Positions 3,850-29,908 of a DNA stretch of 34,946 nt are shown one piece after another (the stretch's first letter is position 1; every line of letters starts with the position of its first letter). The stretch lies in the NCBI GenBank assembly GCA_019187225.1, contig JABAQQ010000051.1:1-34946 (forward strand). The letters are read 5' to 3'. Both the position numbers and the translations under genes were made by a program. This DNA is from Saprospiraceae bacterium. GTDB lineage: Bacteria > Bacteroidota > Bacteroidia > Chitinophagales > Saprospiraceae. The notes under the pieces are model-generated. The model was not told the origin of the DNA, searched no databases, and saw only the letters and a program-made list of their open reading frames with translations.

Positions 3850-3953
3850 GGTGGACGGTGGACGGTGGACGATGGACGATGGACGGTGGACGGTGGACGA
3901 TGGACGGTGGACGGTGGACGGTGGACGGTAGACGGTGGACGGTGGACGGTTTG
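3850..3953. repeat. Heptamer tandem array, 14 units of GGTGGAC/GATGGAC
   Basis: Fourteen uninterrupted 7-bp units run from 3850 to 3947 (GGTGGAC, GATGGAC or GGTAGAC), followed by a decayed unit GGTTTGAC. The array starts at the base next to the lpxH GTG start and fills most of the divergent lpxH-hldD intergenic region. It has only one orientation, unlike the other arrays in the window. There are no spacers between units, so it is not CRISPR-like. Confidence 0.97.
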
Positions 3954-3967
3954 ACGGCGCAAAGATG

Positions 3968-3975
3968 TACTTTTG
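3968..3975 (+). promoter_or_regulatory. Probable -7 box for hldD
   Basis: TACTTTTG matches the Bacteroidota -7 consensus TAnnTTTG and lies 30 bp before the hldD ATG. No TTG is found at the expected 17-23 nt upstream, because that stretch is the end of the heptamer array; the only nearby TTG is 14 nt away. Confidence 0.45.
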
Positions 3976-4005
3976 CCCTCGTTTCTCACACTCTCACACT
4001 TTCAC

Positions 4006-5010
4006 ATGATCGTAGTCACCGGCGCGGCAGGATTCATCGGCTCCTGCCTGATAAAACGACTCAATGACGCGGGCTATGCCGACGTACTGGCAGTGGACGA
4101 TTTTTCCCGCCCCGACAAAAACCGCAATCTCGAAGGCAAAAAATTGTGGGGGCAGGTGCACCGCAACAACTTCGTTCGCTGGCTTGAACGCAATCACGCC
4201 GACGTGGACGCCGTATTACACCTCGGCGCACGCACCGACACCACGGAGACGAACGTGCAGATTTTCAATGAATTGAATCTCGAATACTCCAAAGCGCTGT
4301 GGATGATCTGCACAGGTTTTCAAATCCCTTTTTTTTACGCCAGCAGCGCTGCCACGTACGGTTTGGGCGAGATCGGTTACTCGGACGACCATACAGTCAT
4401 TCCGCAATTAAAGCCTCTGAACCCCTACGGTCAATCGAAGCAGGATTTCGATGTCTGGGTGCTTGAAATGGTAGAGGGTAGAGGGTCGAAGGCAGAGGGT
4501 ACTCGCTCCACCCTCCACCCCCCAGCATGGGCCGGCTTCAAATTTTTCAACGTTTACGGCCCCAACGAATACCACAAAGGCCGCATGGCGTCGGTCATTT
4601 TTCACACAGCGCGACAAATCAAGGCAACCGGCGGCATGAAACTATTCCGTTCGCACCGCCCCGATTTTAAGGATGGCGAACAAAGCCGCGATTTTATTTA
4701 CGTCAAGGATGTGACGGATGTCCTGTTGTTTTTCCTGGAAGAAAGACCTCCGAATGCGATTTACAACCTCGGCACTGGCAAGGCCCGAACCTTCCTCGAC
4801 CTGGCGACCGGCACTTTCCGCGCCCTGCACCTGGAACCGAACATCTCCTTCATAGATACCCCCGCCGATATCCGCGACACCTATCAGTATTTCACGCAGG
4901 CGGAAATGGACAAACTCCGCGCTGCCGGCTACCGGGAGCCGTTTTACGGGCTGGAAGAAGGAATAGAAGACTATGTACAGCGGTATCTGAAAGACGAGAC
5001 CATTTTTTAA
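4006..5010 (+). CDS. hldD: ADP-L-glycero-D-manno-heptose 6-epimerase
   Basis: 334-residue short-chain dehydrogenase/epimerase that converts ADP-D-glycero- to ADP-L-glycero-D-manno-heptose for the lipopolysaccharide core. The Rossmann motif TGAAGFIGS is at residues 5-13, the catalytic Tyr141/Lys145 pair is in NPYGQSK, and the HldD signature FNVYGPNEYHKGRMASV follows. The ATG at 4006 is used because the protein then begins directly with the first beta strand. Residues 155-174 form a loop about 12 residues longer than in E. coli HldD; it is encoded by a 7-bp repeat array (separate entry) that keeps the frame. The last two A of the stop codon are also the first bases of the downstream octamer array. 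Divergent from lpxH, consistent with outer-membrane biogenesis. Confidence 0.92.
   Translation: MIVVTGAAGFIGSCLIKRLNDAGYADVLAVDDFSRPDKNRNLEGKKLWGQVHRNNFVRWLERNHADVDAVLHLGARTDTTETNVQIFNELNLEYSKALWMICTGFQIPFFYASSAATYGLGEIGYSDDHTVIPQLKPLNPYGQSKQDFDVWVLEMVEGRGSKAEGTRSTLHPPAWAGFKFFNVYGPNEYHKGRMASVIFHTARQIKATGGMKLFRSHRPDFKDGEQSRDFIYVKDVTDVLLFFLEERPPNAIYNLGTGKARTFLDLATGTFRALHLEPNISFIDTPADIRDTYQYFTQAEMDKLRAAGYREPFYGLEEGIEDYVQRYLKDETIF
4470..4525. repeat. Heptamer array inserted in frame within hldD
   Basis: Units GTAGAGG, GTAGAGG, GTCGAAG, GCAGAGG, GTACTCG are followed by the inverse-sense CTCCACC, CTCCACC, CCCC. Arms at 4470-4483 and 4506-4519 are complementary at 12 of 14 positions with a 22-nt loop. 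It adds a Gly/Ser/Arg/Pro-rich surface loop between the catalytic helix and the GFKFFNVYG strand of the epimerase. Confidence 0.8.
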
Positions 5011-5082
5011 AGGTTGGCGGGTTGGCGGGTTAACGGGTTGGCGGGTTAACGGGTTAACGGGTTGACGGGTTGGCGGGTTGGG
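5009..5082. repeat. Octamer array, left arm (GGGTTGGC/GGGTTAAC)
   Basis: About nine units of an 8-bp word (GGGTTGGC, GGGTTAAC, GGGTTGAC) run head to tail directly from the hldD stop codon. The outermost bases are AAAGGTTGGCGGGTTG. The same word occurs in opposite orientation after the next gene, giving an inverted pair. Confidence 0.95.
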
Positions 5083-5156
5083 AGGAACCTGAGTCATCTC
5101 AGCGATAAGGATAATCAAAGAACTGAAATTGAATTTTTTAACCAAATGGTACAAAC

Positions 5157-5621
5157 ATGAAATTTAGAAGATTTGAAGAAATTGAGGCTTGGCAGATTGC
5201 GCGGGAAATGTGCAAACTTGTAAAGCGATTTACCGATAAAGAAAAGTTTAGCCGCGATTGGGATTTAAAGAATCAAATCAAATCATCTTCGGGCTCAGCG
5301 ATGGATTGTATTACCGAAGGCCATGAGCGGGGTAACAACAGCGAGTTTGTTTATTTCTTGGGAATTGCAAAAGGCTCAAGTGGCGAAGTGCGCTCCCAAG
5401 CCTATCGTGCACTGGATTGGGATTATATCACAGAAGAAGAGCGGATTCAGTTGGACAACTTGGATTGGCGGACAGGTGCTGCTATTCAAGGATTAATTGA
5501 TTACCTGAATACGGGACCATTAAAAGGAAGAGGACAGCGATATTCAAAGTCTAAAAAATCAAAGTACCAACCTGTTAATTTTTCCGACCCTAATTTTCCT
5601 GACTCCCCCCCTCCATTCTAA
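5157..5621 (+). CDS. Four-helix bundle protein (S23/IVP, bAvd-like family)
   Basis: 154 residues matching the family found as intervening-sequence proteins in 23S rRNA genes and, in related form, as Avd of diversity-generating retroelements. The N-terminal FRRFEEIEAWQIAREMCKLV, the SSSGSAMDCITEGHERG turn and the EFVYFLGIAKGSSGEVRSQAYRAL helix are the usual hallmarks. The C-terminal ~35 residues are basic and Ser/Lys-rich, then Pro-rich. Family members are small homo-oligomeric, nucleic-acid-associated proteins with no proven enzymatic activity. There is no rRNA and no reverse transcriptase in this window, so neither known context applies. The gene is enclosed by inverted octamer arrays, and its stop codon overlaps the right array. 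It is also visibly more A+T-rich than hldD and the oxidoreductase beside it, which fits acquisition. Confidence 0.88.
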   Translation: MKFRRFEEIEAWQIAREMCKLVKRFTDKEKFSRDWDLKNQIKSSSGSAMDCITEGHERGNNSEFVYFLGIAKGSSGEVRSQAYRALDWDYITEEERIQLDNLDWRTGAAIQGLIDYLNTGPLKGRGQRYSKSKKSKYQPVNFSDPNFPDSPPPF

Positions 5622-5690
5622 CCCGCAAACCCGTCAACCCGCAAACCCGCAAACCCGTCAACCCGTTAACCCGTCAACCCGCCAACCTTT
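5620..5690. repeat. Octamer array, right arm (inverse of the left arm)
   Basis: Units read AACCCGCA, AACCCGTC, AACCCGTT on the plus strand, the complement of the left-arm words, ending in GCCAACCTTT. It begins within the stop codon of the four-helix-bundle gene and ends 6 bp before the following ATG, so it also forms most of the leader of the next gene. Confidence 0.95.
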
Positions 5691-5696
5691 CGCAGC

Positions 5697-6683
5697 ATGC
5701 GCACTTACAACTGGGGTATCATCGGCGCGAGCAAGATCGCCCGGAAATTCGCCGACGACCTGAAACGCCTGTCCAATGCCCGGCTCCACGCCGTGGCTTC
5801 CACTTCTGCCGACCGCGCCGCCGCTTTCGCTGCCGAGTACGGGGCGGCGCATTCTTTCGGGCGCTACGAGGACATGGTGCATTGTCCGGACCTGGACATC
5901 GTATACGTCGCTACACCGCACGTTTTGCACTGCGAAAATACTTTGTTCTGCCTCGAGCACGGTATTCCCGTATTGTGCGAAAAACCTTTCGCCATGAACA
6001 GCGCCGAAGCGCACCGGATGGTGGCGGCAGCGCGGAAAAACCGCGTATTCCTCATGGAAGCCCTCTGGACGCGCTTTATTCCGGCTGTCAGCCAGGTCTT
6101 CGAATTGATCGAAGCCGGCGAGATCGGCATGGTGCATACCGTCAAATCCGATTTCGGCTTCAGAATGCCATTCGACCCTTCACATCGCATTTTCAACAAA
6201 GCCCTCGGTGGCGGTTCGCTGCTCGACATCGGGATCTATCCCGCATTGCTGTCCTTGTTGACTTTCGGGAAACCCGACGCCAAAGACATCCTCGCTGCAG
6301 CTACTTTTACGCAAACAGGCGTGGATGAAAGCTGCGCTTTCAGCTTCCGATATCCCGGCAACAGGCTGGCAATCGGCCACAGCACCGTGGCCGCAACCAC
6401 GCCGGTAGAGGCCTGGCTTTTTGGTACGGAAGGCACGATCTACCTGCATCCGCGCTGGCACCACACCGAACGCCTCACCGTGTCGCGTTACGAAGGTCGT
6501 GGGGAAATCAAACACGACCTGCAGTTTCCATACGAAGGCTGGGGTTATGCCTTCGAGGCAGCCCATGTGATGCAATGTCTTGAAAATGAGATGTTGGAAA
6601 GCGACAAACTCCCGCTCGATTTGACGCTCAACCTGGTGGAGACCCTGGATGACATACGGGCGAAAGTGGGGTTGGAGTATTGA
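5697..6683 (+). CDS. Gfo/Idh/MocA family NAD(P)-dependent oxidoreductase
   Basis: 328 residues with an N-terminal Rossmann fold (WGIIGASKIARKFADDL), the family motif CEKPFA near residue 98, and the C-terminal alpha/beta domain including ALGGGSLLDIGIYPALL. The overall pattern (EALWTRFIPA, SDFGFR, GGGSLLDIGIYP) resembles dimeric dihydrodiol dehydrogenase/D-xylose dehydrogenase-like members. They oxidise or reduce sugars and cyclic diols in the cytoplasm. The exact substrate cannot be assigned. It starts 6 bp after the octamer array, so its translation signals lie in repeat sequence. Its stop codon TGA is the first three bases of another octamer run (TGAGTGTT). Confidence 0.88.
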   Translation: MRTYNWGIIGASKIARKFADDLKRLSNARLHAVASTSADRAAAFAAEYGAAHSFGRYEDMVHCPDLDIVYVATPHVLHCENTLFCLEHGIPVLCEKPFAMNSAEAHRMVAAARKNRVFLMEALWTRFIPAVSQVFELIEAGEIGMVHTVKSDFGFRMPFDPSHRIFNKALGGGSLLDIGIYPALLSLLTFGKPDAKDILAAATFTQTGVDESCAFSFRYPGNRLAIGHSTVAATTPVEAWLFGTEGTIYLHPRWHHTERLTVSRYEGRGEIKHDLQFPYEGWGYAFEAAHVMQCLENEMLESDKLPLDLTLNLVETLDDIRAKVGLEY

Positions 6684-6710
6684 GTGTTTGAGTGTTTGAG
6701 TGTTTGAGTG
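6681..6710 (+). repeat. Short octamer run TGAGTGTT, 3.75 units
   Basis: Three complete TGAGTGTT units and a TGAGTG remnant begin at the stop codon of the oxidoreductase gene. No inverse-sense partner is seen nearby. This is the smallest of the word arrays in the window. Confidence 0.9.
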
Positions 6711-6762
6711 GGGAGAGGCGGAGAATATTTTTTCTGCAACTTCTTTGCCGGGCATTTGTTTC

Positions 6763-6778
6763 ATCGCATATTTGCGAT
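6763..6778 (+). promoter_or_regulatory. ArsR-type operator upstream of the regulator gene
   Basis: ATCGCA-TATT-TGCGAT is a perfect 6-4-6 inverted repeat 15 bp before the ArsR-family ATG, of the size expected for one winged-helix dimer. The embedded ATATTTG resembles a -7 box, so repressor binding would block the promoter (autoregulation, inferred). Confidence 0.6.
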
Positions 6779-6793
6779 ATAAAATCATCCAGC

Positions 6794-7132
6794 ATGGCTG
6801 TCAATAAAAAACAGGAATTTTCAGCGGAAGAAGTGGCTTTATCAGAATTCGCCAAAGCCTTGTCGCACCCCGCCCGGGTGGCCATACTGCGCACGCTGGC
6901 GGAAAAACAAATGTGCATCTGTGGCGAAATCGTGGAGGTGCTGCCCTTGGCGCAGGCCACCGTTTCCCAGCATCTGAAAGAACTCAAGAACGCCGGCCTT
7001 ATTACCGGCGAAATCGAAGGCGTCCGTTCCTGTTATTGTATCCACTGGGACAACCTGGAAGCAATGGCCGCCCGTTTCGAGCAGTTCGCCGCATCGCTGC
7101 GCGCGCTGAAACCCGTCGAAAATTGTTGCTGA
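6794..7132 (+). CDS. ArsR-family metal/metalloid-responsive repressor
   Basis: 112 residues with the winged-helix core: [24 protein letters not shown], then [31 protein letters not shown], then the wing [14 protein letters not shown]. Two Cys in the MCICGE motif at the start of helix alpha-3 and a C-terminal NCC match the thiol set used by arsenite-type sensors. The ATG at 6794 is chosen because it follows the palindromic operator and gives a family-length protein. No arsenite pump, arsenate reductase or methyltransferase lies beside it; the next gene is a secreted peptidase 249 bp away. The regulon is therefore unclear, and autoregulation is the only link the sequence supports. Confidence 0.88.
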
Positions 7133-7381
7133 GATAGCAGGCGGCGGAAGGCATATGAGCAGCCCCCTTTTGAACCGGGGCATGGGAACAATTTACCCAC
7201 AACAGGCGGCGTAATGCCTGATTCGCATGCGTATTGTTTTCCTTTCATTGATCGCCCCTCTCACCTTTTTTTAAAAATCCGGGATTTTATACGACAGAAA
7301 TCCGAACTTTACCAACTCTTAGAACCGCTTCAATTGTTCCGGAACTGATTATCGCAACATTACAAACTCAACAACTTTTTT

Positions 7382-8350
7382 ATGAAAAAAATCCTCCTGC
7401 TCGCCCTGCTCATGGCGGCGACCGCCCAACTATTCTCCCAAAGCGCCAAGATCAAAACACCTCAAAAAAATACATCCGCCGGCGCCGCCCAATTGAAACT
7501 GAATCAGTCGCCGGTAGCTGTACCGCCAGCCAAAAATCCATTCGGCTTGCCGGGCGTCAAATATCAAACGCTTCCAGCGCTTGTTCCGCAAAACAGCGCC
7601 ACCGCTCCAAATATACGCGTCACCCGCGACAAAAACGGCATGCCGATTTTATTTGAAGGAAAAACCGGGGCATCCGGCAATACTTCCGATCTGAAAACGG
7701 ACGCGCTCGCATACCTGGCAAGCCTGCAACCGGCTGGCATCACGGCCCCTTCTTCCGAATTTATCGCAAAACGGGTGGAAACCGACGAAGCGGGCAACAG
7801 CCACGTCCGTCTCGAACAAATATACCAGGGAGTGCCGGTGTTTGGCGGTGAAGTGATCGCCCACGCCCGCAGCGGCGCATTCGACCTGCTCAACGGACGC
7901 TACTACCCCACTCCTCAACTGGCATCCATAACGCCCGCCCTCGACGCCAGCCGCGCCATTGACCGCGTGAAAATGGCCATCGGTCCGGAGAACCTCCAAA
8001 CCGACTGGACGCCCGAACAAAAACAACTATTGAAGATCGAACCTTTCAAAGCCGAACTGGTGATCTATCATCACGATTTTCAATTAGACAACGAACGCCT
8101 CGCCTGGCACGTGGAAGCCCGGCCCAATCTGATGAAGCGGGTCGTTTATTTCGTGGATGCCCTTTCCGGGGAAGTGATCCATCACTACGATTTTACCTGT
8201 AAAATTGACGGAGGCAGGCATACAGTATGCAGTGGGCATTTGGCAGTTGGCAGTGAACAGTGGGCAGTGAGCCCACTGCCCACTGTTCACTGCCAACTGC
8301 CAAATGCCCACTGCATACCCTCCTCCCCCCGTCACCGGCAACGGCACTGA
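7382..8350 (+). CDS. M4 metallopeptidase, N-terminal fragment (signal, FTP and PepSY pro-region); frame broken
   Basis: Encodes a signal peptide (MKKILLLALLMAATAQLFSQ), an FTP-type propeptide and a PepSY-like segment. The latter ends in RVVYFVDALSGEVIHHYDF, the standard end of a thermolysin-type pro-region. From codon 282 on, the frame reads through the 94-bp palindrome and stops at 8350 after ~41 residues of nonsense. The catalytic domain continues in another frame. Deleting exactly 8225-8318 would fuse codon 281 to the downstream frame and give a 1031-residue protein. As it stands this fragment could be secreted but cannot cleave anything. Alternatives are a pseudogene, a phase-variable on/off state, a translational bypass, or an assembly artefact at a hairpin. 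Confidence 0.8.
   Translation: MKKILLLALLMAATAQLFSQSAKIKTPQKNTSAGAAQLKLNQSPVAVPPAKNPFGLPGVKYQTLPALVPQNSATAPNIRVTRDKNGMPILFEGKTGASGNTSDLKTDALAYLASLQPAGITAPSSEFIAKRVETDEAGNSHVRLEQIYQGVPVFGGEVIAHARSGAFDLLNGRYYPTPQLASITPALDASRAIDRVKMAIGPENLQTDWTPEQKQLLKIEPFKAELVIYHHDFQLDNERLAWHVEARPNLMKRVVYFVDALSGEVIHHYDFTCKIDGGRHTVCSGHLAVGSEQWAVSPLPTVHCQLPNAHCIPSSPRHRQRH
8225..8318. repeat. Perfect 94-bp palindrome of heptamers inside the M4 peptidase gene
   Basis: Two 45-bp arms (8225-8269 and 8274-8318) are exactly complementary around the 4-nt loop AGCC. Each arm is built of 7-bp words: CAGTGGG, CATTTGG, CAGTTGG, CAGTGAA, CAGTGGG. It sits exactly between the coding parts for the pro-region and the catalytic domain. 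Its length is 1 modulo 3, which accounts for the frame break. No target-site duplication is evident. Confidence 0.97.
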
Positions 8351-10571: not shown

Positions 10572-10587
10572 AAACGGCGCCGGCGAA

Positions 10588-10626
10588 GAGATGCCATCGG
10601 CCGAAGTATGAGGCTGGCGACATCTC
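10588..10626. repeat. Imperfect hairpin, first of a pair
   Basis: GAGATGCCATCGGCC pairs imperfectly with GGCTGGCGACATCTC around the loop GAAGTATGA. It shares the core TGCCATCG with the second hairpin 75 bp downstream, which suggests copies of one element. Confidence 0.5.
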
Positions 10627-10663
10627 AGAACAGCTCCATAACCCAATTTGAAATGTGCCCTTT

Positions 10664-10972: not shown

Positions 10973-10980
10973 AACGCTTT
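10973..10980 (+). promoter_or_regulatory. Probable -7 box for the SdrD/HYR-like cargo gene
   Basis: TATTTTTG fits TAnnTTTG; it lies 161 bp before the ATG at 11142, implying a long 5' leader. No TTG is seen at the expected distance, so support is the -7 box alone. Confidence 0.3.
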
Positions 10981-13897: not shown

Positions 13898-15370
13898 ATG
13901 GCAACTACACCGCCCAAACGGAAAAAGACCCTCCTGTATGTTCTGATCGGATTGTTCGCTTTACTCATCATCGCCGCCGTCATTAAGGCCCGCTCCAAGC
14001 CTAAAGGCGAAGATGTGACCGTGGAAACAGTCCAGCGCCGCACCATCCGCGAAACGGTGAGTGCCAGCGGAAAAATTTTCCCGGAAACCGAAGTCAAAAT
14101 GAGTTCGGATGTATCCGGCGAGATCACAGAATTATACGTCCAGGAAGGCGATTCGGTCACTGCCGGGCAGATTCTGGCCAAAATACGCCCCGACGAGTAC
14201 CAAAGCGCCGTCGAGCAGGGGCAAGCCTCCCTGAACACCGCCCGCTCGCAGCGCGAGATATCCACCGCCAATGTAAAGACCAGCACAGCGCAGATCGACC
14301 AATTCAAAGCCGACGTGCAAAGAACGAAGGCACAACTCGATGCAGCCCGCAATACGCACCAGCGCAATGAAAAACTATACAAAGACGGCGTGATCTCGAC
14401 TGCCGATTTTGAAACGTCACTCAGCAATCTGAAGGCCGCAGAAAGCTCCATGACGGCTGCAGAAGCCAGTCTGAAGACCGCTGAAAACAATCTCGCCAAC
14501 GCCCGTGAAAACGTTCGGGTGTCCGACTTCGGTATCACCAGCGCCAATGCCCGCCTCAAAGAACTCAGAACGAGTTTGCAAAAAACCATCATCACCGCGC
14601 CGGTGAACGGCATTGTGAGCAAACTCAACGTGGAAAAGGGCGAACGTGTGGTCGGTACGCTGCAGATGGCCGGCACGGAGATGATGCGCATCGCCAACCT
14701 CAGTTCTATGGAAGTGCAGGTGGATGTGAGTGAGAACGACATCCTCAAAGTAAGCGTCAACGACGAGGCCGATATCGAGGTGGATGCTTATCTGGGTCGC
14801 AAATTCAAAGGAAAAGTCACCGAAATTGCCAACAGCGCCAGCAACGTCAGCACCGCCGCCGTGAGCCTCAACACCGACCAGGTGACCAATTTCGTCGTGA
14901 AAATCCGCGTAGACCCGGCTTCTTATGCCGATCTGATGGGCAAAGGCAAGCTGCACCCCTTCCGCCCGGGCATGTCCGCTTCCGTGGATATTTACACCAA
15001 CACTGCCGACAGCACGCTCAGCATCCCGCTCATCGCTGTCACCACACGCGAAGATGAAAAGGATAAGGATGAAATGGAAAATGAAAAAAAGGCCGAAGCC
15101 AAAGAAGTCAGCCAAAAGAACGACGACAAGATCAAGGAAATCGTTTTTGTAGTGGCAGGCGATACAGTCGGCATTCGCGAAGTGAAAACCGGTATCCAGG
15201 ACAACGATTATATTGAAATACTCACCGGATTGCAGGAGGGTGAGACGGTCGTTACAGGCCCTTATTCCGCCATTGCCCGCAAACTCAAAGGCGGCAGCCG
15301 GATCGTCGTTACCGATAAAAAGAAAGGGGAAAACAAGGATAAAAAGGGTGTGAGCGTGGAGGTGGATTGA
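13898..15370 (+). CDS. Efflux transporter periplasmic adaptor subunit (HlyD/MacA-type)
   Basis: 490 residues. One N-terminal membrane anchor (~residues 12-30) is followed by a lipoyl half-motif (KMSSDVSGEITELYVQEGDSVTAGQILAKI), a long alpha-helical hairpin (~residues 105-215, rich in Ala/Gln/Asn/Lys), and the second lipoyl half (APVNGIVSKLNVEKGERVVGT). A beta-barrel domain follows (MEVQVDVSENDILKVSVNDEADIEVDAYLGRKFKGKV). This is the order of membrane-fusion proteins that bridge an inner-membrane pump and a TolC-like channel. A very acidic/lysine-rich insertion (~residues 387-415) and a lysine-rich tail are unusual. No permease, ABC ATPase or outer-membrane factor gene is next to it, so its partners are elsewhere. 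A weak -7 box (TAATCTTG, 13846-13853) lies 44 bp upstream. Confidence 0.9.
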   Translation: MATTPPKRKKTLLYVLIGLFALLIIAAVIKARSKPKGEDVTVETVQRRTIRETVSASGKIFPETEVKMSSDVSGEITELYVQEGDSVTAGQILAKIRPDEYQSAVEQGQASLNTARSQREISTANVKTSTAQIDQFKADVQRTKAQLDAARNTHQRNEKLYKDGVISTADFETSLSNLKAAESSMTAAEASLKTAENNLANARENVRVSDFGITSANARLKELRTSLQKTIITAPVNGIVSKLNVEKGERVVGTLQMAGTEMMRIANLSSMEVQVDVSENDILKVSVNDEADIEVDAYLGRKFKGKVTEIANSASNVSTAAVSLNTDQVTNFVVKIRVDPASYADLMGKGKLHPFRPGMSASVDIYTNTADSTLSIPLIAVTTREDEKDKDEMENEKKAEAKEVSQKNDDKIKEIVFVVAGDTVGIREVKTGIQDNDYIEILTGLQEGETVVTGPYSAIARKLKGGSRIVVTDKKKGENKDKKGVSVEVD

Positions 15371-15373
15371 GGG

Positions 15374-15577
15374 ACTTTTGACTGTTGGACGTTGACGTTA
15401 GACGTTGGACGTTAGACGTTGGACGTTAGACCTTGTACATTTGACTTAATGGTCGGTTATCCTCGTCTGAACTCCAAAGTCCAATGTCTAACGTCGAATG
15501 TCCAACGTCCTTTGTCCAACAGTCCAAAGTCCAATGTCTAACGTCGAATGTCCAACGTCCAACAGTCCAAAGTCCCA
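15374..15577. repeat. Inverted heptamer arrays with a 38-bp exact direct repeat
   Basis: The left part (15374-15432) is made of TTGGACG/TTAGACG words; the right part (15472-15577) holds the inverse-sense words GTCCAAT, GTCTAAC, GTCGAAT, GTCCAAC. A ~40-bp unrelated spacer lies between them. Within the right part a 38-bp segment occurs exactly twice (15473-15510 and 15523-15560, period 50). The transcript could fold into a long hairpin behind the efflux-adaptor gene. Confidence 0.93.
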
Positions 15578-15588
15578 AAATTGAATCT

Positions 15589-15596
15589 TACTTTTG
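15589..15596 (+). promoter_or_regulatory. Probable -7 box for the small membrane protein gene
   Basis: TACTTTTG, a full match to TAnnTTTG, lies 44 bp before the ATG at 15641 and directly after the heptamer arrays. Any -33 element would have to lie within the repeat. Confidence 0.45.
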
Positions 15597-15640
15597 CGGG
15601 CGTCTCATAGGCAAAGGCTAAGGAGACCGCCACCATTTTT

Positions 15641-23670: not shown

Positions 23671-23694
23671 AAGATAGTTTGAGGCAAATATAAG

Positions 23695-23759
23695 TGCAAT
23701 TTTGAAATTGCATAAGATTTATTTTTAAATTACATAAACCTTATTTTGAAATTGCATAA
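23695..23759. promoter_or_regulatory. Iteron-like direct repeats and palindrome upstream of the DUF4143 ATPase
   Basis: TTTGAAATTGCATAA occurs at 23701-23715 and 23745-23759, and as TTTTAAATTACATAA at 23723-23737, each exactly 22 bp apart. The first copy also completes the perfect inverted repeat TGCAATTT-TG-AAATTGCA (23695-23712). The 22-bp spacing puts the sites on one face of the DNA, as for a multimeric binding protein. It sits between the divergent ATPase and recJ genes. Confidence 0.65.
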
Positions 23760-23831
23760 ACTTGATAAGCATAGAGCATACAAATTGGGCAAAACCCCAT
23801 ACTTTAGCCCTCGAAACATCCCCATCCGCGC

Positions 23832-25538
23832 ATGAAATCACCCCGCTGGCAACTCATTCCCACCGACGAAGCCGCCGTGCAGGCGTTGCGCCGTGTGTTG
23901 GGGATTGACCCTTTGTTCTGCCGGCTTCTCGTGCAACGCGGGGTGACGACCTTCGACGAAGCCCGCGCTTTTTTCCGCCCCAGCCTCGACGATCTGCACA
24001 ATCCCTTTCTGATGAAAGATATGGACGCGGCAGTGGCACGGCTCGACGATGCCCTGCGGCGCAAAGAGCGTATCCTGCTGTACGGCGACTACGATGTGGA
24101 CGGCACCACGAGTGTGGCGCTGATGTACGCCTTTCTTTCCGGTTTTTACCGCAATCTCGACTATTACCTGCCCGACCGCGAAAAAGAGGGCTACGGGGTG
24201 AGCCTCGCCAGCGTGGAATACGCCCGCGAAACCGGCGCCACATTAGTGATCGCCATGGACTGCGGCATCAAGGCCCAGGAAGCGATAGCGCGGGCGAAAG
24301 GTTACGGCATTGATTATATCGTCTGCGACCACCACCTGCCCGAAGGCGAACTGCCCGGCGCGGTGGCCAACCTCGATCCCAAACGCGCCGATTGCCCCTA
24401 TCCTTTTAAGGAACTCAGTGGTTGCGGCATCGCTTTCAAACTCGCCCAGGCGTTGGCAATGCAACACAACACGCCGCCTGAAGAACTCGACGACCTGCTC
24501 GATCTCGTGGCCGTCAGCACCGCCTGCGACATTGTGCCAATGACGGGCGAGAACCGCATCCTCGCGCGATTCGGTCTGCACCGGCTCAACCACGCGCCCC
24601 GTACCGGCCTGTGGGCCCTGATGCAACGGATCAACCGGCCTTTCCCCCTCGATGTCGCGGACCTGGTGTTCGGGCTGGGCCCGCTCATCAATGCCGCCGG
24701 GCGGCTCGGCGACGCCCGCGAGGCAGTCCGCCTAATGCTCTCCGCCGACCGCAACAGCGCACTCGATTACGCCGGCGCACTCGTTCGCCGCAATAAGGAG
24801 CGCCGCGAAGTGGATTACGCCATGGCCGACGAAGCGCGCCGCCGCTTCACCGGAACGCCCGGCTGGGAGGCGCGTAAAAGCATTGTGTTGTTCGACCCCA
24901 ACTGGCACAAAGGCATCATTGGTATTGCCGCCAGCCGCATGACCGAAGCTTTTCACAAGCCGTCGGTTATTCTGACCAAAAGCAATGACCGCGCCGTCGG
25001 TTCGGCGCGTTCGGTGCCGGGATTCGACCTGTATGCCGCCCTCCGGGACTGCGAAGACCTGTTTTTTTCTTACGGCGGCCACGCCCATGCCGCCGGAATG
25101 CAAATGCCGGTGGATAATGTGGAGGCTTTCGCCGAGCGTTTTGAAAACATTGCCAATCAACACATTACTCCTGAAAATGAGCATCCGGTGCTGGACATAT
25201 GCGCCGGGATACGCCTTGACGACATCACACCGAAATTCTGGCAGATGCTGCGTCAATTCGAGCCTTTCGGCCCGCACAACCGCAATCCGGTTTTTTGGGC
25301 GGAAGGCGTAGTGGATACCGGTCATAGCCGCCGTTTGGACAACAACCATGTGCGGCTTTCCCTGCGCCATACCAACAGCGCCATGGCGTTCAAAGGCATC
25401 GGCTTCGGTTTGGCGGATGTGTTTGAAAAAGTGAAAGACCGCCCGTTCGATGTGGCGTTCAACCTGAAAGCCGAGCAATGGCGGGGTGAGGCAAAGCTGT
25501 CGCTGCACGTAAAGGATTTCAGGAGGAGCGAAGGATAA
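23832..25538 (+). CDS. recJ: Single-stranded-DNA-specific 5'-3' exonuclease RecJ
   Basis: 568 residues, normal for RecJ. DHH-family phosphoesterase motifs are in order: DYDVDGTTS (residues 86-94), AMDCGIKA, the DHH of YIVCDHHLP, and NLDPKRADCPY. The DHHA1 part has GSARSVPGFDLY and YGGHAHAAGMQM, and the OB-fold region follows (FEPFGPHNRNPVFW). It degrades single-stranded DNA from the 5' end in mismatch and recombination repair, with two bound Mn/Mg ions. A near -7 box, TACTTTAG (23800-23807), lies 24 bp upstream of the ATG. It converges on the next gene, with a hairpin between. Confidence 0.95.
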   Translation: MKSPRWQLIPTDEAAVQALRRVLGIDPLFCRLLVQRGVTTFDEARAFFRPSLDDLHNPFLMKDMDAAVARLDDALRRKERILLYGDYDVDGTTSVALMYAFLSGFYRNLDYYLPDREKEGYGVSLASVEYARETGATLVIAMDCGIKAQEAIARAKGYGIDYIVCDHHLPEGELPGAVANLDPKRADCPYPFKELSGCGIAFKLAQALAMQHNTPPEELDDLLDLVAVSTACDIVPMTGENRILARFGLHRLNHAPRTGLWALMQRINRPFPLDVADLVFGLGPLINAAGRLGDAREAVRLMLSADRNSALDYAGALVRRNKERREVDYAMADEARRRFTGTPGWEARKSIVLFDPNWHKGIIGIAASRMTEAFHKPSVILTKSNDRAVGSARSVPGFDLYAALRDCEDLFFSYGGHAHAAGMQMPVDNVEAFAERFENIANQHITPENEHPVLDICAGIRLDDITPKFWQMLRQFEPFGPHNRNPVFWAEGVVDTGHSRRLDNNHVRLSLRHTNSAMAFKGIGFGLADVFEKVKDRPFDVAFNLKAEQWRGEAKLSLHVKDFRRSEG

Positions 25539-25542
25539 ATTG

Positions 25543-25585
25543 CCCGGTGTTTTTGTGCACACACATTTAGGCCGGGCGGTATTTT
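25543..25585. terminator. Shared hairpin between recJ and the convergent gene
   Basis: GCCCGG (25543-25548) and CCGGGC (25573-25578) pair around a 24-nt loop that contains the palindrome GTGCAC; TATTTTTC follows. It lies 4 bp after the recJ stop and 8 bp before the stop of the minus-strand gene, so it may serve both. Confidence 0.55.
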
Positions 25586-26326
25586 TCAGGAGGACAAACG
25601 CTCCGCATCTACCTTTTTCATTTCAGCGAGATCGAGCAAGCCGGATTTCCCTTCCGCTTTCATCAATTGCACCAACTGGCAGCAATGCTCGAAAAATACC
25701 TGCGTTTCGTCGGCGTTCAGCGCCTTTCCCGGTTTGTAGGCAATGAGATAGTAGTTGCTGCCCTCGAGGTGCACCGGTGGGCGCTCCGTCAGAAAGCGCT
25801 GCAACTCGGGGCTGAATTTTTCCCGGATCAAAGCTTCGATCTCGCCCGTCAGCCAAAAGCGATTGGAAAAATCGGGGTGTTCGGGAAAATTGATATCTTT
25901 TTTTGCGCCCATTACACCCAGCAATTTTTGCCACCAGTTTTCAGGACGCAGGCGAAAGTCGGGCAACTGAAAATTTTTATCGTTGGCGAAAAAAACCGTT
26001 TGGCGCACTTCGCGGTGGGTGTTGCCTGCATGCACTACGTAGGAATAATCGAACAACCAGACGTCCGTCCCGTCTACCTGGCTGCGCATTACATTGGTCA
26101 CATGACCTCCGCGCCCCCAACGAAAGCCGCGCTCGCGCTTGAAAAGATCGAACGCCTTAAGTTGATTGCTCAATCCAAAAAGGTCCTTTTCATAGAATGG
26201 CAAGCCCATTGTCTCTGCTAGTTGCTGCAGCTCGTTGCGACGTTGCGCTTTGCGTTGTTGCTTGAACCAGAAAATGCCGGCTGCAAATGCAGCCATGGCG
26301 GTAATTACAAGGATCGGGAAGAACAT
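25586..26326 (-). CDS. Single-TM protein of unknown function
   Basis: 246 residues. One N-terminal membrane segment (MFFPILVITAMAAFAAGIFWF) is followed by a basic stretch and a soluble domain with no family I can name. The soluble part contains YEKDLFGLSNQLKAFDLFKRERGFRWGRGGHVTNVM and a beta-strand run (DGTDVWLFDYSYVVHAG). The phrases LFKRERGFRWG and WLFDYSYV are like a DUF in membrane-anchored Bacteroidota proteins that resemble DUF3137, but the match is uncertain. It lies 28 bp downstream of mvaA on the same strand, with its own possible -7 box. Confidence 0.7.
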   Translation of the reverse strand: MFFPILVITAMAAFAAGIFWFKQQRKAQRRNELQQLAETMGLPFYEKDLFGLSNQLKAFDLFKRERGFRWGRGGHVTNVMRSQVDGTDVWLFDYSYVVHAGNTHREVRQTVFFANDKNFQLPDFRLRPENWWQKLLGVMGAKKDINFPEHPDFSNRFWLTGEIEALIREKFSPELQRFLTERPPVHLEGSNYYLIAYKPGKALNADETQVFFEHCCQLVQLMKAEGKSGLLDLAEMKKVDAERLSS

Positions 26327-26345
26327 GATGGCCTGAATTTCAGGA

Positions 26346-26353
26346 CAAATATA
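26346..26353 (-). promoter_or_regulatory. Possible -7 box for the single-TM protein gene
   Basis: TATATTTG on the minus strand lies 20 bp before the ATG at 26326, partly within the gap behind the mvaA stop. No -33 TTG at proper distance was found. Confidence 0.35.
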
Positions 26354-26354
26354 T

Positions 26355-27707
26355 TCAATGCATCAATGCAGCGCCGGGAGAATTCGCTCTTTGGGCATCC
26401 AGAAACGCCCGTACACCGCTGAAACTCACCGTTTGGTTTTGAAAATGATATTGTGCCGCCGCGGCTTCTTCTTCCGAGGCGCAAAGATGGTTGAGGATAT
26501 TGGTCAGGTGCATTTTCATGTGTCCCTGTTGTATGCCGGTAGTAATAAGCGAACGTACGGCGGCGAAGTTCTGGGCCAGGCCGACCGCCGCCACGATACA
26601 CATCAATTCTGAAGCGGAGGGGTAGCTGAGGATTTCGAGCGAGCATTTGGCAAGGGGGTGCAGGGCAGTGAGTCCGCCCACGGTACCGAGTGCCAGCGGA
26701 ATTTGCAGTTCGAAGCGAAAAACGCCGCCATCAACCGTACAGTGGCTGAGGCTGCGGTATTGTCCGTCGCGACATGCATAAGTATGTCCGCAGGCCTCTA
26801 TGGCGCGAAAGTCATTGCCTGTAGCCAGCACAACCGCATCTATTCCGTTGAAAATGCCTTTGTTGTGCGTGGTGGCGCGGTAAGGGTCAATCTCAGCGAT
26901 GCGAACGGCTGCGGCAAAGCGGTCGGCCAATTGCGCCGCGTCCATACCCTGGCTGCGGGCGAGTTCGTCGAAGGAAGCGATGGGGGCTTCCACCCAGGCG
27001 CGCACTAGACATTCGGGCGTGTAGTTCGACAGAATGGACATCACGACCTCCACGTCGCGCTCGGCATCGGGCAAGCCGGGATAATCGGTGAAGAAATTTT
27101 CCAGGGCGTCCGCCAGGCGTTCAAGTACCGAATTGATAAAATTGGCGCCCATGCTGTCGCAGGTCTCAAAGGAAGCGCGGAGCTGGAAATAACAGGGTTC
27201 GAGCGCCGTAAAATCGAGCAAACGGATGTCGCGGATGCCGCCTCCGCGCTTGCGCATGTTGGTCGTCAGATCGTCGCATGAGGAAAGCAGGAAGGCGCGC
27301 AGATCGGGAAAAAGAGACTGCAATTTTTCGGGCGATCCCGTCCAGCGAAAATGTACCTGGCCGAGTTTCACCGTGCCGGCGACTTCAGCGTGAAAACCTC
27401 CCCGGTCGAGCCAGAACTTGGCGGCGCTCGATGCCGCTGCCACCACACTGCTTTCTTCGATGACCATCGGCACGGCATATATTCTGCCATTGATCAGGAA
27501 ATTGGGCGCGATGCTGTACGGAAGCACATAGTTGGCGATGGCGTTCTCCGTGAATCCGTCAATGACCTTTTGGGTTTGTTCATCAGGGTGTTGCCAATCG
27601 GAGAGCATCCGTTTCGCCACCAGCGCATCGCCAGCGAAATTTTCAGCCAACCACTTGATCTTCTGCTGCTTGTTGAGTTTTGAAAAGCCGTTTATCGTTT
27701 TCGACAT
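26355..27707 (-). CDS. mvaA: Hydroxymethylglutaryl-CoA reductase, class II (degradative type)
   Basis: 450 residues from the ATG at 27707 (MSKTINGFSKLNKQQKIKWL); an upstream in-frame methionine would translate the octamer array and is rejected. Class II HMG-CoA reductase is recognised from VIEESSVVAAAS (catalytic Glu), TTHNKGIFNGIDAVVLATGNDFRAIEA (Lys and Asp) and GIQQGHMKMH (His). NFINGR/VLPYSIAPNFLIN matches the same family. The enzyme interconverts HMG-CoA and mevalonate. Next to fni, it is more likely used in isoprenoid synthesis than in mevalonate breakdown. It lies ~100 bp downstream of fni, separated by an octamer array whose nearest unit is 8 bp from the start codon. Confidence 0.92.
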   Translation of the reverse strand: MSKTINGFSKLNKQQKIKWLAENFAGDALVAKRMLSDWQHPDEQTQKVIDGFTENAIANYVLPYSIAPNFLINGRIYAVPMVIEESSVVAAASSAAKFWLDRGGFHAEVAGTVKLGQVHFRWTGSPEKLQSLFPDLRAFLLSSCDDLTTNMRKRGGGIRDIRLLDFTALEPCYFQLRASFETCDSMGANFINSVLERLADALENFFTDYPGLPDAERDVEVVMSILSNYTPECLVRAWVEAPIASFDELARSQGMDAAQLADRFAAAVRIAEIDPYRATTHNKGIFNGIDAVVLATGNDFRAIEACGHTYACRDGQYRSLSHCTVDGGVFRFELQIPLALGTVGGLTALHPLAKCSLEILSYPSASELMCIVAAVGLAQNFAAVRSLITTGIQQGHMKMHLTNILNHLCASEEEAAAAQYHFQNQTVSFSGVRAFLDAQRANSPGAALMH

Positions 27708-27715
27708 ACTATCAT

Positions 27716-27801
27716 GTTTGAGGGTTTGAGGGTTTGAGGGTTTCAAAATTTGGGGTTGGCGGCAACCCTGAAATCTTGAAATCCTGAAAACTCGAAACCT
27801 C
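27716..27801. repeat. Octamer array with fold-back part between fni and mvaA
   Basis: Three GTTTGAGG units (27716-27739) are followed by an imperfect inverted repeat 27738-27784: GGGTTG (27753-27758) and CAACCC (27763-27768) close a GCGG loop, and TTTCAAAATTT/GAAATCTTGAAAT extend the stem. CTGAAAA/CTCGAAA words continue to about 27800. It forms the leader of mvaA on the minus strand. Confidence 0.8.
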
Positions 27802-27810
27802 GCCCCCCCG

Positions 27811-28878
27811 CTATTTTACTCTTAGAAAAGCCTGCGCCAGTTCCAGCCCCCGCACCTGTGCCTCTACAAAAGAGCGGAGATCGGCGTATTCACCGCGGGC
27901 ATATTTTAAAAATCCGGACGCCTGGCCGTATACTGCAGGCAGTGAGGATTTGCTGAGCAAAAAATATCCGTCGAGAAAATCCCGGATACCGCCTGAAATG
28001 ATCAGGTGCCGCACCCGGCAACGATCGCCCAATTCCGTTTTCAGCGCATTCACAAAACCCAGCATTTCGACGGCGGAATGACCGACGGCGGCAATTTTTT
28101 CAAAGATCAATTGTTTGACGGGGTCGCTGCGCAGGAGCTCGAGTTTGGCGAAATTGGTGCCGCCGGCGGCGGCGAATTCGATGGCTTCGATGGGCAGTTG
28201 CATCAGCGCGCGCAGGCTTTCCGGACCGAAACCCTGCCCCACTTCCTTGACAATTATTTTAATATCGAGCGTTTGTAACAATTCCTGGATAACTTCTACA
28301 GGAGGGCGTTTGAAGATGTCTCCTTCGGGCTGCATGGCTTCCTGCAAGGGATTCACATGAACGATGAGACCGTCGGCGCGGAGTTTTTGCAGCAATTCGG
28401 GAATGCGGCCGCTTTCTTTTTTCTCCAGCAGTTGCTCGATCTGCGCGACGCCGAGGTTGGCATAGAGGGGTAGATCGGGCCCGATGGTATTGCGGACGTC
28501 GAAATCGGCGAGGAATTCATTGCCGTAGAGCAGCTGGCGGCAGGAGCCGAGGCCCATGCCGAAGCCAAACTCGGCGCAGGCGCGCGCGAGGTTGTGGTTG
28601 ATGACGTTCGCCAGCGCTGTACCGCCGGTCATACTCGATACCCATAATGGCGCGCGCAATTCTTTTCCTAAAAATGGGAAGGGAGGCTGTGAGCCGGGCG
28701 GGGGATGGGGGCTGAGGAGTGGCTCATAGTAAAAACGGCCATCCAGTTCAGCCGATTCCACCCGGCTTTTAAAAGCAAGTTCAATGTGATCCTGTTTCCG
28801 GGAAACAGCGGTGGGATCGTCGTCGGACAAGCCGATGAGTACAGCCGGATGCAATTTTGTCGGGTCGTCTGATGCCAT
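27811..28878 (-). CDS. fni: Isopentenyl-diphosphate delta-isomerase, type 2 (FMN)
   Basis: 355 residues from the ATG at 28878, chosen because a -33/-7 promoter pair lies just upstream (28899-28926) and the family begins near RKQDHIELAF. Type 2 signatures are SSMTGGT, the HVNPLQEAMQPEGD stretch (Gln/Glu of the Mg site), KEVGQGFG, EFAAAGGTNFAKLE and the FMN phosphate site ISGGIRDF. It interconverts isopentenyl and dimethylallyl diphosphate using reduced FMN and Mg. Followed by mvaA on the same strand, probably one transcript. The upstream open frame to 28980 would remove the promoter and is not used. Confidence 0.92.
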   Translation of the reverse strand: MASDDPTKLHPAVLIGLSDDDPTAVSRKQDHIELAFKSRVESAELDGRFYYEPLLSPHPPPGSQPPFPFLGKELRAPLWVSSMTGGTALANVINHNLARACAEFGFGMGLGSCRQLLYGNEFLADFDVRNTIGPDLPLYANLGVAQIEQLLEKKESGRIPELLQKLRADGLIVHVNPLQEAMQPEGDIFKRPPVEVIQELLQTLDIKIIVKEVGQGFGPESLRALMQLPIEAIEFAAAGGTNFAKLELLRSDPVKQLIFEKIAAVGHSAVEMLGFVNALKTELGDRCRVRHLIISGGIRDFLDGYFLLSKSSLPAVYGQASGFLKYARGEYADLRSFVEAQVRGLELAQAFLRVK

Positions 28879-28898
28879 TCGGGTGTGCAGTCCTAAAG

Positions 28899-28926
28899 CA
28901 AAGATAAGACTTTCAGCACGACGCAA
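28899..28926 (-). promoter_or_regulatory. Promoter of fni (TTG-N17-TATCTTTG)
   Basis: On the minus strand TTG at 28926-28924, a 17-nt spacer and TATCTTTG at 28906-28899 match the Flavobacterium-type consensus TTG-N17-23-TAnnTTTG. The start codon lies 20 bp downstream. This is the best-supported promoter in the window. Confidence 0.65.
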
Positions 28927-28977
28927 GAAACAAAGCTGGCTGGCAAAGGTTTTTGAAGGATTTTTAAATGAAAGGCA

Positions 28978-29012
28978 CATGAGTCATACCGAATTTTTCA
29001 GAATGACTCATG
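28978..29012. promoter_or_regulatory. Perfect 10-bp-arm palindrome upstream of fni
   Basis: CATGAGTCAT (28978-28987) and ATGACTCATG (29003-29012) are exact complements around a 15-nt gap that itself holds GAA-TTT-TTC. It lies about 50 bp upstream of the fni promoter and about 100 bp after the stop of the next minus-strand gene. It could be an operator or a terminator of that gene; there is no T run on either strand. Confidence 0.5.
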
Positions 29013-29114
29013 TCGTTGAAAATGAGTGGATTGAGATACTCCCGGCTTCAGCCTTCCCGACTTCCCATCTCCCGAACATATTTATCTCCAAATACCCAAA
29101 CATCTCAGGCTCCT

Positions 29115-29768
29115 TTACCGCACGATCTTAAAGGAAAAATGACCGTTGCCGGTAGCGGCCCAGGTGCGCACCCAGATGGGCAGCAACATTTCCGTGCCGC
29201 GCGCCGTCGTGATATCGCCCAGATCGATCACGTCATTCCAGCCCCAGGGTGTCAGAAAATTACCGACCACCATTTGTTTGGCGTCAGCGTCGTTGCCGCT
29301 GACGAACATGGTCCCCCGGTCGTTCGGCGATGATTTGCCGGCATTGACCATGACTTCGCAGTTGACGATGTTGAGGGTTTTTACCACTTTGGCATCGGGG
29401 AAGGTGTGCTGGATTTGTTCGCCCAACGAATCGGTATTGCATATAAAGAGAGAAGGTGGCATACCTTTTGAAAAGTCGAGCGGGTTGCTGATGTCCACCA
29501 GCACTTTGCCGGCGAGGTTGACGGCGCCGGCAGCCCGCAATGCATCGAGGGTGCCGTCGCCTTTGGTGCAAACGAAAATAACTTTGCCGAAAGCCGCGGC
29601 ATCCGAAAAGGAGCCTTCGGAGGCATTGGCGCCGTTGGCCGTTACCCATGCGACGGCCTTTTCATTGCCTTTCGTGCGGCTGCCCATTTTGACGGAATGT
29701 CCGAGCCGGATAAGTGCTGAACCGATGGTGTGGCCGACCATGCCGGTTCCGAGGACTGCTATGTTCAT
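29115..29768 (-). CDS. NADP oxidoreductase, coenzyme F420-dependent family-type
   Basis: 217 residues from the ATG at 29768; the frame extends 19 codons upstream but the Rossmann strand MNIAVLGTGMVGHTIGSALIRLGHSVKMGSRT must begin the protein. The dinucleotide motif GTGMVG and the phrase VLVDISNPLDFSKGMPPS are those of the NPR/F420-dependent NADP reductase family. The GTMFVSGNDADAK segment is part of the same domain. In bacteria without F420 these proteins reduce or bind NADP with other partners, so the true substrate is open. It has no obvious operon partner; a heptamer array separates it from the AraC-type fragment upstream. Confidence 0.85.
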   Translation of the reverse strand: MNIAVLGTGMVGHTIGSALIRLGHSVKMGSRTKGNEKAVAWVTANGANASEGSFSDAAAFGKVIFVCTKGDGTLDALRAAGAVNLAGKVLVDISNPLDFSKGMPPSLFICNTDSLGEQIQHTFPDAKVVKTLNIVNCEVMVNAGKSSPNDRGTMFVSGNDADAKQMVVGNFLTPWGWNDVIDLGDITTARGTEMLLPIWVRTWAATGNGHFSFKIVR

Positions 29769-29833
29769 ATTTGAAAGAATTTGGTTGAAATAAATGGTAA
29801 ATTTTTGATTTAAGTATGTGGACAAAACAGATT

Positions 29834-29908
29834 GACATTGGACGTTGGACTATCAGACCTTGGAAACCTATCATTTAGTCTGATGTCCAAAGTCTAAAAT
29901 CAAATGTC
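29834..29908. repeat. Small inverted heptamer array
   Basis: Left words GACATTG, GACGTTG, GACTATC (29834-29858) face right words GTCCAAA, GTCTAAA, ATCAAAT, GTC (29878-29908) across a ~19-bp gap. Pairing is imperfect. It lies between the NADP oxidoreductase start and the AraC-type fragment. Confidence 0.7.

What the first reader, a model, noticed from the sequence alone, without database searches (positions are those of the whole stretch)
3850..29908. A shared design of locus-private 7/8-bp word arrays, mostly in inverted pairs
At 3850, 4470, 5009/5620, 6681, 8225, 15374, 27716 and 29834 a 7- or 8-bp word is tandemly repeated with small changes. At 4470, 5009/5620, 8225, 15374, 27716 and 29834 the word returns in reverse orientation, so the DNA or RNA could fold. 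The words differ (GGTGGAC, GGGTTAAC, CAGTGGG, TTGGACG, GTTTGAGG), so this is not one repeat copied unchanged. The arrays touch coding ends: the lpxH start, the hldD stop, the oxidoreductase start and stop, and the mvaA leader. Such arrays resemble the short tandem heptamer repeats reported for cyanobacteria, but I know of no description with this fold-back design. A common generator, such as templated slippage or an element, is an inference.
Basis: partly seen in the sequence, partly recalled or inferred. Interest (0 to 1): 0.8.

Follow-up and report, generated by a model that had tools for sequence, protein, structure and literature searches.

The report
Hairpin repeats around a jumping gene
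Many of the short repeated words that fold back on themselves look like the arms, or gene-less leftovers, of a small mobile element carrying one gene (a 'four-helix bundle' protein, also found in ribosomal RNA inserts), which may explain puzzling short repeats in unrelated bacteria.

Summary
The arrays are real, but the window is a corner of the story. The pair 5012-5081/5620-5687 flanks a PF05635 (IVP, S23, four-helix-bundle) gene. The genome has 11 PF05635 matches; 10 sit between a short-word array and its reverse complement, the 11th is at a contig end. In the genus 44 of 48 tested IVP loci have such flanks, against 0 of 75 control genes and 8 of 3000 random stretches. The design recurs, more weakly, across Bacteroidota and on cyanobacterial and two other plasmids. 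Homologous plasmids show filled and empty sites at about 90-98% identity, and one site occurs full, empty and as an ORF-less remnant. One relative holds two 96%-identical array-gene-array units. Words are shared by close IVP relatives, gene-less arrays match the host's own IVP words more often than other genomes' words, and array density rises with IVP number, with exceptions. About a third of gene-less arrays here match an own IVP word. Words are not locus-private. Fold-back heptamers were already reported in Xanthomonas; I found no paper linking them to IVP genes. The moving enzyme is unknown.

The parts
5012..5081 (+). left (G-rich) arm of the complete IVP element, 8-bp word GGTTGGCG/GGTTAACG, one base after the hldD-like stop codon
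   Evidence: TRF; sequence; inverted partner score 101
5157..5621 (+). IVP gene (PF05635 23S_rRNA_IVP; TIGR02436 four helix bundle protein), 154 aa
   Evidence: Pfam E 5.1e-21, 75.3 bits, over cut-off; TIGR02436 66 bits; profile of relatives matches PDB 2gsc and 2rld
5620..5687 (+). right (C-rich) arm, reverse complement of the left arm, ending 9 bp before the next ORF start
   Evidence: TRF; fold z -13.7 over 5005-5695
3848..3950 (+). one-armed array, about 15 copies of ACGGTGG, at the start of the phosphoesterase (lpxH-like) gene; same word as IVP locus L002
   Evidence: match to L002 arms 76 (background 99% point 10); gap between BLAST matches 155 bp here, 77 bp in G007/G009
4470..4524 (+). 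weak array GGTAGAG/CTCCACC inside the epimerase ORF; fold no better than chance; not a clean insertion relative to G007/G009 (6-8 nt length difference over 1 kb)
   Evidence: weak match 13 to L002 arms
6680..6710 (+). one-armed array TTGAGTGT overlapping the oxidoreductase stop codon; word shared with IVP locus L007
   Evidence: match 28 to L007 arms
8225..8318 (+). ORF-less hairpin (CAGTGGG/CAGTTGG words), 45-bp stem, in the linker between FTP propeptide and M4 peptidase; the reading frame differs on its two sides
   Evidence: fold z -16.2, 45 pairs; match 23 to L006 arms; Pfam; most listed relatives have one open frame of about 1050-1160 aa, some shorter
15372..15575 (+). ORF-less fold-back array (GGACGTT / TCCAACG) starting one base after the HlyD-like stop codon
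   Evidence: fold z -10.1; match 30 and 29 to L005 arms; absent after the HlyD stop in G007/G009
27716..27797 (+). ORF-less fold-back array GTTTGAGG / TGAAATCT-type by the HMG-CoA reductase start
   Evidence: fold z -5.4; weak match 16 to L007 arms for 27716-27757, none for 27769-27797
29834..29905 (+). short degenerate fold-back array of TTGGACG words
   Evidence: sequence; fold z -4.5 over 29830-29910; weak match 14 to L005 arms

Best explanation
The arrays are the arms, and in good part the gene-less derivatives, of a dispersed family of small mobile elements. A complete element is a tandem array of a short word (6-10 bp in most, G-rich when read towards the loop), one IVP/S23 four-helix-bundle gene, and the reverse complement of that array. 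It inserts as a unit at gene junctions, often right after a stop codon, so neighbouring genes stay intact. Loss of the gene leaves ORF-less hairpins and one-armed arrays. Close IVP relatives share a word family, so IVP is probably the factor that recognises the word. Shown by sequence: flanking arrays, co-travel of arms and gene, empty sites, remnants, word-gene correlation. Inferred: that most gene-less arrays have this origin (about a third in this genome are tied to an own IVP by word); that the transcript folds into a long stem cut by RNase III, as shown for a 23S rRNA intervening sequence (PMC4990558); that IVP oligomers bind the words or their hairpin; that array length changes by slippage. 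Unknown: which enzyme makes the new copy. No catalytic gene was seen in the element. A reverse transcriptase seems not required, since IVP-rich genomes without a detected RVT_1 gene exist.
For: 10 of 11 own IVP matches lie between inverted arrays, IR scores 45-205. IR >=36 in 44/48 genus IVP loci, 0/75 control genes, 8/3000 random stretches. Lag-7 self-match 0.366/0.347 against 0.254 further away, 110 loci. On plasmids (16 of 34 records fetched) lag-7 0.438/0.428, IR >=28 in 12/16 (8.3% of mismatched pairs), >=36 in 9/16 (3.7%). Copies 96.4% identical over 499 bp, arm to arm, at two places in G012 with unrelated flanks. Empty sites: closest relatives at the window locus; homologous plasmids. 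Decayed copy and ORF-less remnant at sites that elsewhere hold a full element. Word similarity rises with IVP protein identity (Mantel r 0.29, highest of 500 permutations 0.13). Gene-less arrays: 8.3 per own-IVP word against 1.9 for other genomes' words, p 0.003; own rank 1, 3, 2, 2, 1, 1 of 19. In the window 3848, 6680, 8225 and 15372 match own IVP arms well above background. Array density against IVP count rho 0.65, p 0.016, 13 genomes. 46 of 49 inverted pairs have a G-rich left arm.
Against: Only 35% of 208 gene-less arrays in G000 match any own IVP arm, and 12%, 5%, 29%, 83% and 36% in G009, G005, G006, G012 and G014; the rest are unassigned. In G009, G005 and G006 one or two other genomes' words matched better per arm than the host's own. 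The window IVP's own word and those of L001 and L009 had 0 gene-less matches. G007 has 7 IVP matches but 3.3 arrays per 100 kb in 60 kb. Strong inverted flanks are a minority outside the genus: 1/10 in other genera of the order, 34/108 in the phylum-wide set, where the own downstream flank was the best partner in only 25/108. The word-protein correlation is not significant within genomes (rho 0.15, p 0.15, n 95) and weak among order-level pairs (rho 0.06, p 0.02). Nearest plasmid flanks of L399, L400 and L410 are direct, not inverted, words in the stretches printed. No consistent target-site duplication. Binding was not tested.
Confidence: 0.79

Rival explanations
1. Arrays come first. Short words amplify by slippage and fold back for other reasons, and IVP genes, like other small mobile elements, then home into the loops of existing hairpins.
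For: Arrays far outnumber IVP genes (218 TRF arrays in 893 kb of G000, against 11 IVP matches in 7.18 Mb). Most gene-less arrays match no own IVP word. Other insert-like sequences also sit in loops. GxxExxY genes have similar flanks. IVP-poor genomes may simply lack targets.
Against: Empty sites carry no array. The two G012 copies share the order of word variants in their arms, so arms moved with the gene. One plasmid site occurs as full element, empty site and remnant.
Confidence: 0.17
2. The arrays are host regulatory sequences: terminators, stabilising hairpins or translational control sites, kept for function. IVP genes are neighbours by accident.
For: Position right after stop codons, strong folding of several, and earlier proposals for heptamers in Beggiatoaceae (PMC4679880).
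Against: Absent or different at the same junctions in close relatives. 48 of 122 arrays lie mostly inside called ORFs. One hairpin sits in a peptidase linker with a frame change. 44/48 association with IVP genes.
Confidence: 0.03
3. Chance or assembly artefact.
For: Repeats break assemblies; several relatives' IVP loci lie at contig ends.
Against: 0.28 arrays expected, 12 seen. The same design is in complete circular plasmids and in relatives assembled into 7 and 9 contigs (G009, G007).
Confidence: 0.01

Closest known systems
23S rRNA intervening sequences (IVS) with S23p/IVP ORF
   Same: Same protein family in the loop of a stem made by terminal inverted repeats. The Coxiella IVS even has three tandem heptamers upstream of the ORF, varying in number between strains, with an RNase III site at the start of the first repeat (PMC4990558, abstract and passages seen).
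   Different: The copies tested here lie outside rRNA (0 Rfam hits in 20 loci). Arms are word arrays, words differ between copies, and gene-less copies are many.
REPIN-RAYT systems (features recalled)
   Same: Dispersed extragenic hairpins with a few cognate genes flanked by the same repeat; works like a gene plus non-autonomous satellites.
   Different: The gene is a four-helix-bundle protein, not a Y1 tyrosine transposase; the repeat is a variable tandem word array, not a fixed palindrome.
Cyanobacterial STRR (recalled), Xanthomonas GGGAATC and Beggiatoaceae TAACTGA heptamer repeats
   Same: 7-bp tandem arrays, mostly intergenic, near ORF ends; in Xanthomonas often convergent pairs (PMC4692102).
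   Different: The two papers do not mention IVP/S23 in their main text (0 hits for '23S' and 'four helix' in both, and for 'S23' in PMC4679880). Whether those arrays belong to IVP elements was tested here only at cyanobacterial plasmid IVP loci.
DGR accessory protein Avd
   Same: PF05635 resembles Avd (PMC10053308, passages seen).
   Different: No RT in the window element; IVP-rich genomes without a detected RT exist.

Membership tests
23S rRNA IVS | S23p/IVP ORF | tested here: met
   PF05635 over cut-off, TIGR02436
23S rRNA IVS | terminal inverted repeats forming a stem around the ORF | tested here: met
23S rRNA IVS | location inside a 23S rRNA gene | tested here: not met
   window copy lies between protein genes; 0 Rfam matches in 20 IVP loci including all 11 of G000
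23S rRNA IVS | excision by RNase III | not testable with these tools
   only a fold is predicted
REPIN-RAYT | Y1 (TnpA-REP) transposase as the cognate gene | tested here: not met
   element ORF matches PF05635 only; G027 has 6 IVP matches and 0 Y1_Tnp
REPIN-RAYT | dispersed satellites sharing the master's repeat | tested here: inconclusive
   own words are favoured, but only 5-83% of gene-less arrays match an own IVP arm, 35% in G000
Short tandem heptamer repeats (STRR type) | tandem arrays of about 7-bp units between genes | tested here: met
   period 7 is the commonest class, 104 of 202 arrays in C1+C3; but 48 of 122 arrays are mostly inside called ORFs
Classical MITE / DNA transposon | fixed terminal inverted repeats and target-site duplication | tested here: inconclusive
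   ends are inverted but variable word arrays; no consistent duplication at the aligned plasmid junctions
DGR | RT with TR/VR near an Avd-like gene | tested here: inconclusive
   no RT of G000 lies in the window contig, so not met for the window copy; two other G000 IVPs lie within 6 kb of an RT; TR/VR repeats were not searched

The most novel reading that the evidence does not exclude
IVP elements are a pan-bacterial class of mobile DNA whose identity lies in a protein-matched word rather than a fixed end sequence. The IVP protein recognises, and helps copy or lengthen, its own word array in trans, so one gene seeds many gene-less hairpins. The heptamer repeats of cyanobacteria, Xanthomonas and Beggiatoaceae, and the 23S rRNA intervening sequences, would then all be products of this one family.
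Probability: 0.33. Interest if true: 0.95.

Novelty: new variant of a known kind. Interest (0 to 1): 0.86.

Why it matters
Short heptamer arrays in bacteria have been reported for years without a carrier, and the S23/IVP protein has no known function according to PMC4990558 (passage). Tying the two together gives each a testable explanation, names empty and filled sites on cyanobacterial plasmids, and suggests a mobile-element design in which the terminal word varies with the protein. It also warns that arrays read as regulatory sites may be element remnants.

Tried and rejected
Locus-private words: rejected; words recur genome-wide. Reverse transcriptase as a required mover: not supported; G005, G006, G010, G016, G027, G032, G033 and G034 have >=5 IVP matches and no RVT_1 match, though their assemblies are 82-98% complete. 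Y1_Tnp and GxxExxY as requirements: each is missing in one IVP-rich genome (G027, G034). rRNA location: no Rfam hit in 20 loci. Phage carriage: no match for one query in the phage collection. Loops of 167-334 bp: mostly insert-like sequence; no IVP was recognised there by eye and no profile search was run. A broad alignment could not seed a collection scan; a narrower one was used, so L121-L200 over-represent one IVP subfamily. Mismatched-pair rates for the control genes are inflated, probably by orthologues on opposite strands, and were not used. IVP loci are not exhaustive: searches listed many more matches than the loci fetched, and best-scoring ones dominate; 62 IVP genes from 60 loci; 108 of 110; 166 of 172; 48 genus and 10 other-order loci after dropping short flanks, proteins under 90 aa or N runs; 9 of 34 GxxExxY loci dropped for short contigs; plasmids: 16 of 34 records fetched. 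The array samples of G000 (C1, C3) and G009 (C1) are contigs that hold IVP genes; other genomes were sampled near hldD, HlyD and M4 genes. IVP counts are numbers of matches and include fragments; G011 was entered as 1 and 2. In one search the random control was confined to non-coding DNA while 48 of 122 arrays are mostly inside called ORFs. 'Satellite' is my label. IS256-like ends, STRR history and REPIN features are recalled.
Full report
Setting. The window is a whole 34,946-base contig of a 7.18-Mb, 73-contig genome, G000. Named homologues of its IVP relatives are mostly Bacteroidota, which suggests that phylum; the genome itself is unnamed.

Observation. TRF finds the arrays at or near the stated coordinates, except 29834, which is below its score limit. 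Twelve arrays of period 6-10 reach score 36, against a mean of 0.28 in 40 simulated windows. Folding supports strong hairpins at 5005-5695, 8225-8318 and 15368-15600, moderate ones at 27710-27800 and 29830-29910, and nothing unusual at 4470. In 753 kb of the genome (C1 1-400k and C3) there are 202 arrays, 104 of period 7; 60 have an inverted partner within 1 kb and 17 a direct one. Of 49 inverted pairs in the G000, G009 and window samples, 46 have a G-rich left arm, 1 a C-rich one and 2 are neutral. Words recur across the genome, so they are not private to a locus.

The key. The inverted pair 5012-5081/5620-5687 encloses ORF 5157-5621, which is PF05635 (23S_rRNA_IVP) and TIGR02436, four helix bundle protein; a profile of relatives matches PDB 2gsc and 2rld. 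G000 has 11 PF05635 matches. Ten lie between a word array and its reverse complement (IR scores 45-205), with a different word at most loci; the eleventh is cut by a contig end.

Association. With 300-bp flanks, an inverted-repeat score of 36 or more is reached by 44 of 48 IVP loci of the genus, 0 of 75 hldD, M4 and HlyD control genes and 8 of 3000 random 400-bp stretches; other genera of the order give 1 of 10. In 108 loci, mostly of Bacteroidota, 34 reach 36 against 1.5% of mismatched pairs, but the own downstream flank is the best partner in only 25, because many loci share similar words. Self-match at lag 7 is 0.366 upstream and 0.347 downstream against 0.254 further away, over 110 loci. 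A tblastn search found relatives on 34 plasmid records; I fetched 16 (14 cyanobacteria, one Gemmatimonadota, one Azospirillum). There lag 7 gives 0.438 and 0.428; 12 of 16 reach 28 and 9 of 16 reach 36, against 8.3% and 3.7% of mismatched pairs; three have direct words nearest the gene. In these plasmids IVP genes sit, among other places, between nrdB and nrdA, between cas6 and cas4 (twice) and between cas10 and a cmr3-type gene.

Mobility. G012 holds two copies 96.4% identical over 499 bp, from arm to arm, with unrelated flanks. At the window locus the closest relatives G007 and G009 have the same neighbours, no IVP and no array; two other relatives have different fold-back arrays right after the hldD stop codon. 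On homologous plasmids, Trichormus ATCC 29413 and Scytonema NIES-4073 carry the element directly after a stop codon where Nostoc linckia NIES-25 and Tolypothrix PCC 7712 are empty; a plasmid of Nostoc C052 has a decayed copy there. At a second site Nostoc C052 and N. edaphicum are filled, C057 is empty (with about 30 bp of different spacer) and ATCC 53789 has an ORF-less array remnant. At a third gene series two different IVP elements sit at two neighbouring junctions on different plasmids, one at an overlapping stop and start codon, and C052 plasmid B is empty at both. At a fourth, an Aulosira plasmid is filled and a Fremyella plasmid empty; the Aulosira and Trichormus elements are 83% alike over about 416 bp although their flanks differ. 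No consistent target duplication was found.

Word and gene. Over 12,585 locus pairs without shared flanks, mean word similarity is about 0.06 below 40% protein identity and 0.24 at 60-80% (Mantel r 0.29, permutation maximum 0.13); same-genome pairs alone are not significant (rho 0.15, p 0.15, n 95) and order-level pairs give rho 0.06. Gene-less arrays in 788 kb of G000 match own IVP words 8.3 times per word against 1.9 for words of other genomes (p 0.003), but three own words, including the window's, have none. In six genomes the own words rank 1, 3, 2, 2, 1 and 1 of 19 per arm; the fraction of gene-less arrays matching any own arm is 35% in G000 and 5-83% elsewhere. In the window, 3848, 6680, 8225 and 15372 match arms of L002, L007, L006 and L005 with scores 76, 28, 23 and 30 against a background 99% point of 10; 4470, 27716 and 29834 match weakly (13-16). 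Array density correlates with IVP number in 13 genomes (rho 0.65, p 0.016), with G007 as a clear exception. Arrays abut stop codons: 45 of 122 within 12 bp against 13.0 expected.

Mechanism. Shown: unit insertion at gene junctions, decay, and a link of word and gene. Inferred: that most gene-less arrays are remnants; that the stem transcript is cut by RNase III, as for an rRNA intervening sequence; that IVP binds the word; that slippage alters array length. The enzyme is unknown. RVT_1 was not found in eight IVP-rich genomes, and Y1_Tnp and GxxExxY in one each.

Literature, from a held library only. Rehm 2015 (PMC4692102; section 10 and passages read) describes fold-back heptamer pairs in Xanthomonas. 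MacGregor 2015 (PMC4679880; abstract, section 12 and passages) describes TAACTGA arrays. PMC4990558 (abstract and passages) describes the Coxiella IVS with a stem and heptamers. PMC10053308 (passages) notes that PF05635 resembles Avd. Nine searches showed no paper, in the listings seen, that ties IVP genes outside rRNA to inverted word arrays. Listings were capped, and most subscription papers are not in this library.

Verdict. The finding is real and wider than its reader thought. It is best explained by IVP elements and their remnants, with the origin of the many unassigned arrays still open.

Noticed in passing
G000 loci L321-L325; relatives L369-L397: GxxExxY (PF13366 PDDEXK_3) genes also sit between inverted short-word repeats: 17 of 25 loci with full flanks reach IR 36 (2.5% of mismatched pairs), with words such as CGCAGATTT and a weak lag-9 peak. 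A second gene class with a similar design.
   Followed up: partly
G000:C1 202945-203461, 226450-226801, 259865-260189, 317344-317790; C3 203015-203426, 326308-326592: Loops of 167-334 bp hold insert-like sequences with their own inverted ends (GGACTGTTCAAAA..., IS256-like by recall) or GGGGCAGCGCCCCG palindromes: elements nested inside hairpin loops.
   Followed up: no
G000:C7 137905/140649 and C21 35761/41535: Two of three reverse transcriptase matches lie within 6 kb of IVP genes; near the C21 one is an nSTAND1-FGE-sulfatase gene, a possible DGR target.
   Followed up: partly
G000:C3 164421-165854 and 165960-166304: Arrays of 22/23-bp repeats lie directly beside a Y1 transposase match, looking like a RAYT with its repeats.
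   Followed up: no
window 8225-8318: The hairpin sits in the linker of an M4 peptidase; the frame changes across it here, while relative G193 (L264) has similar degenerate words in one open frame in the same linker.
   Followed up: partly
L399, L404, L407 (cyanobacterial plasmids): IVP genes sit inside CRISPR-Cas operons at cas6/cas4 (twice, with different words) and at a cas10/cmr3-type junction.
   Followed up: partly
window 23699-23763 and 32899-32978: Separate 22-bp and 21-bp tandem repeats with no inverted partner found.
   Followed up: no
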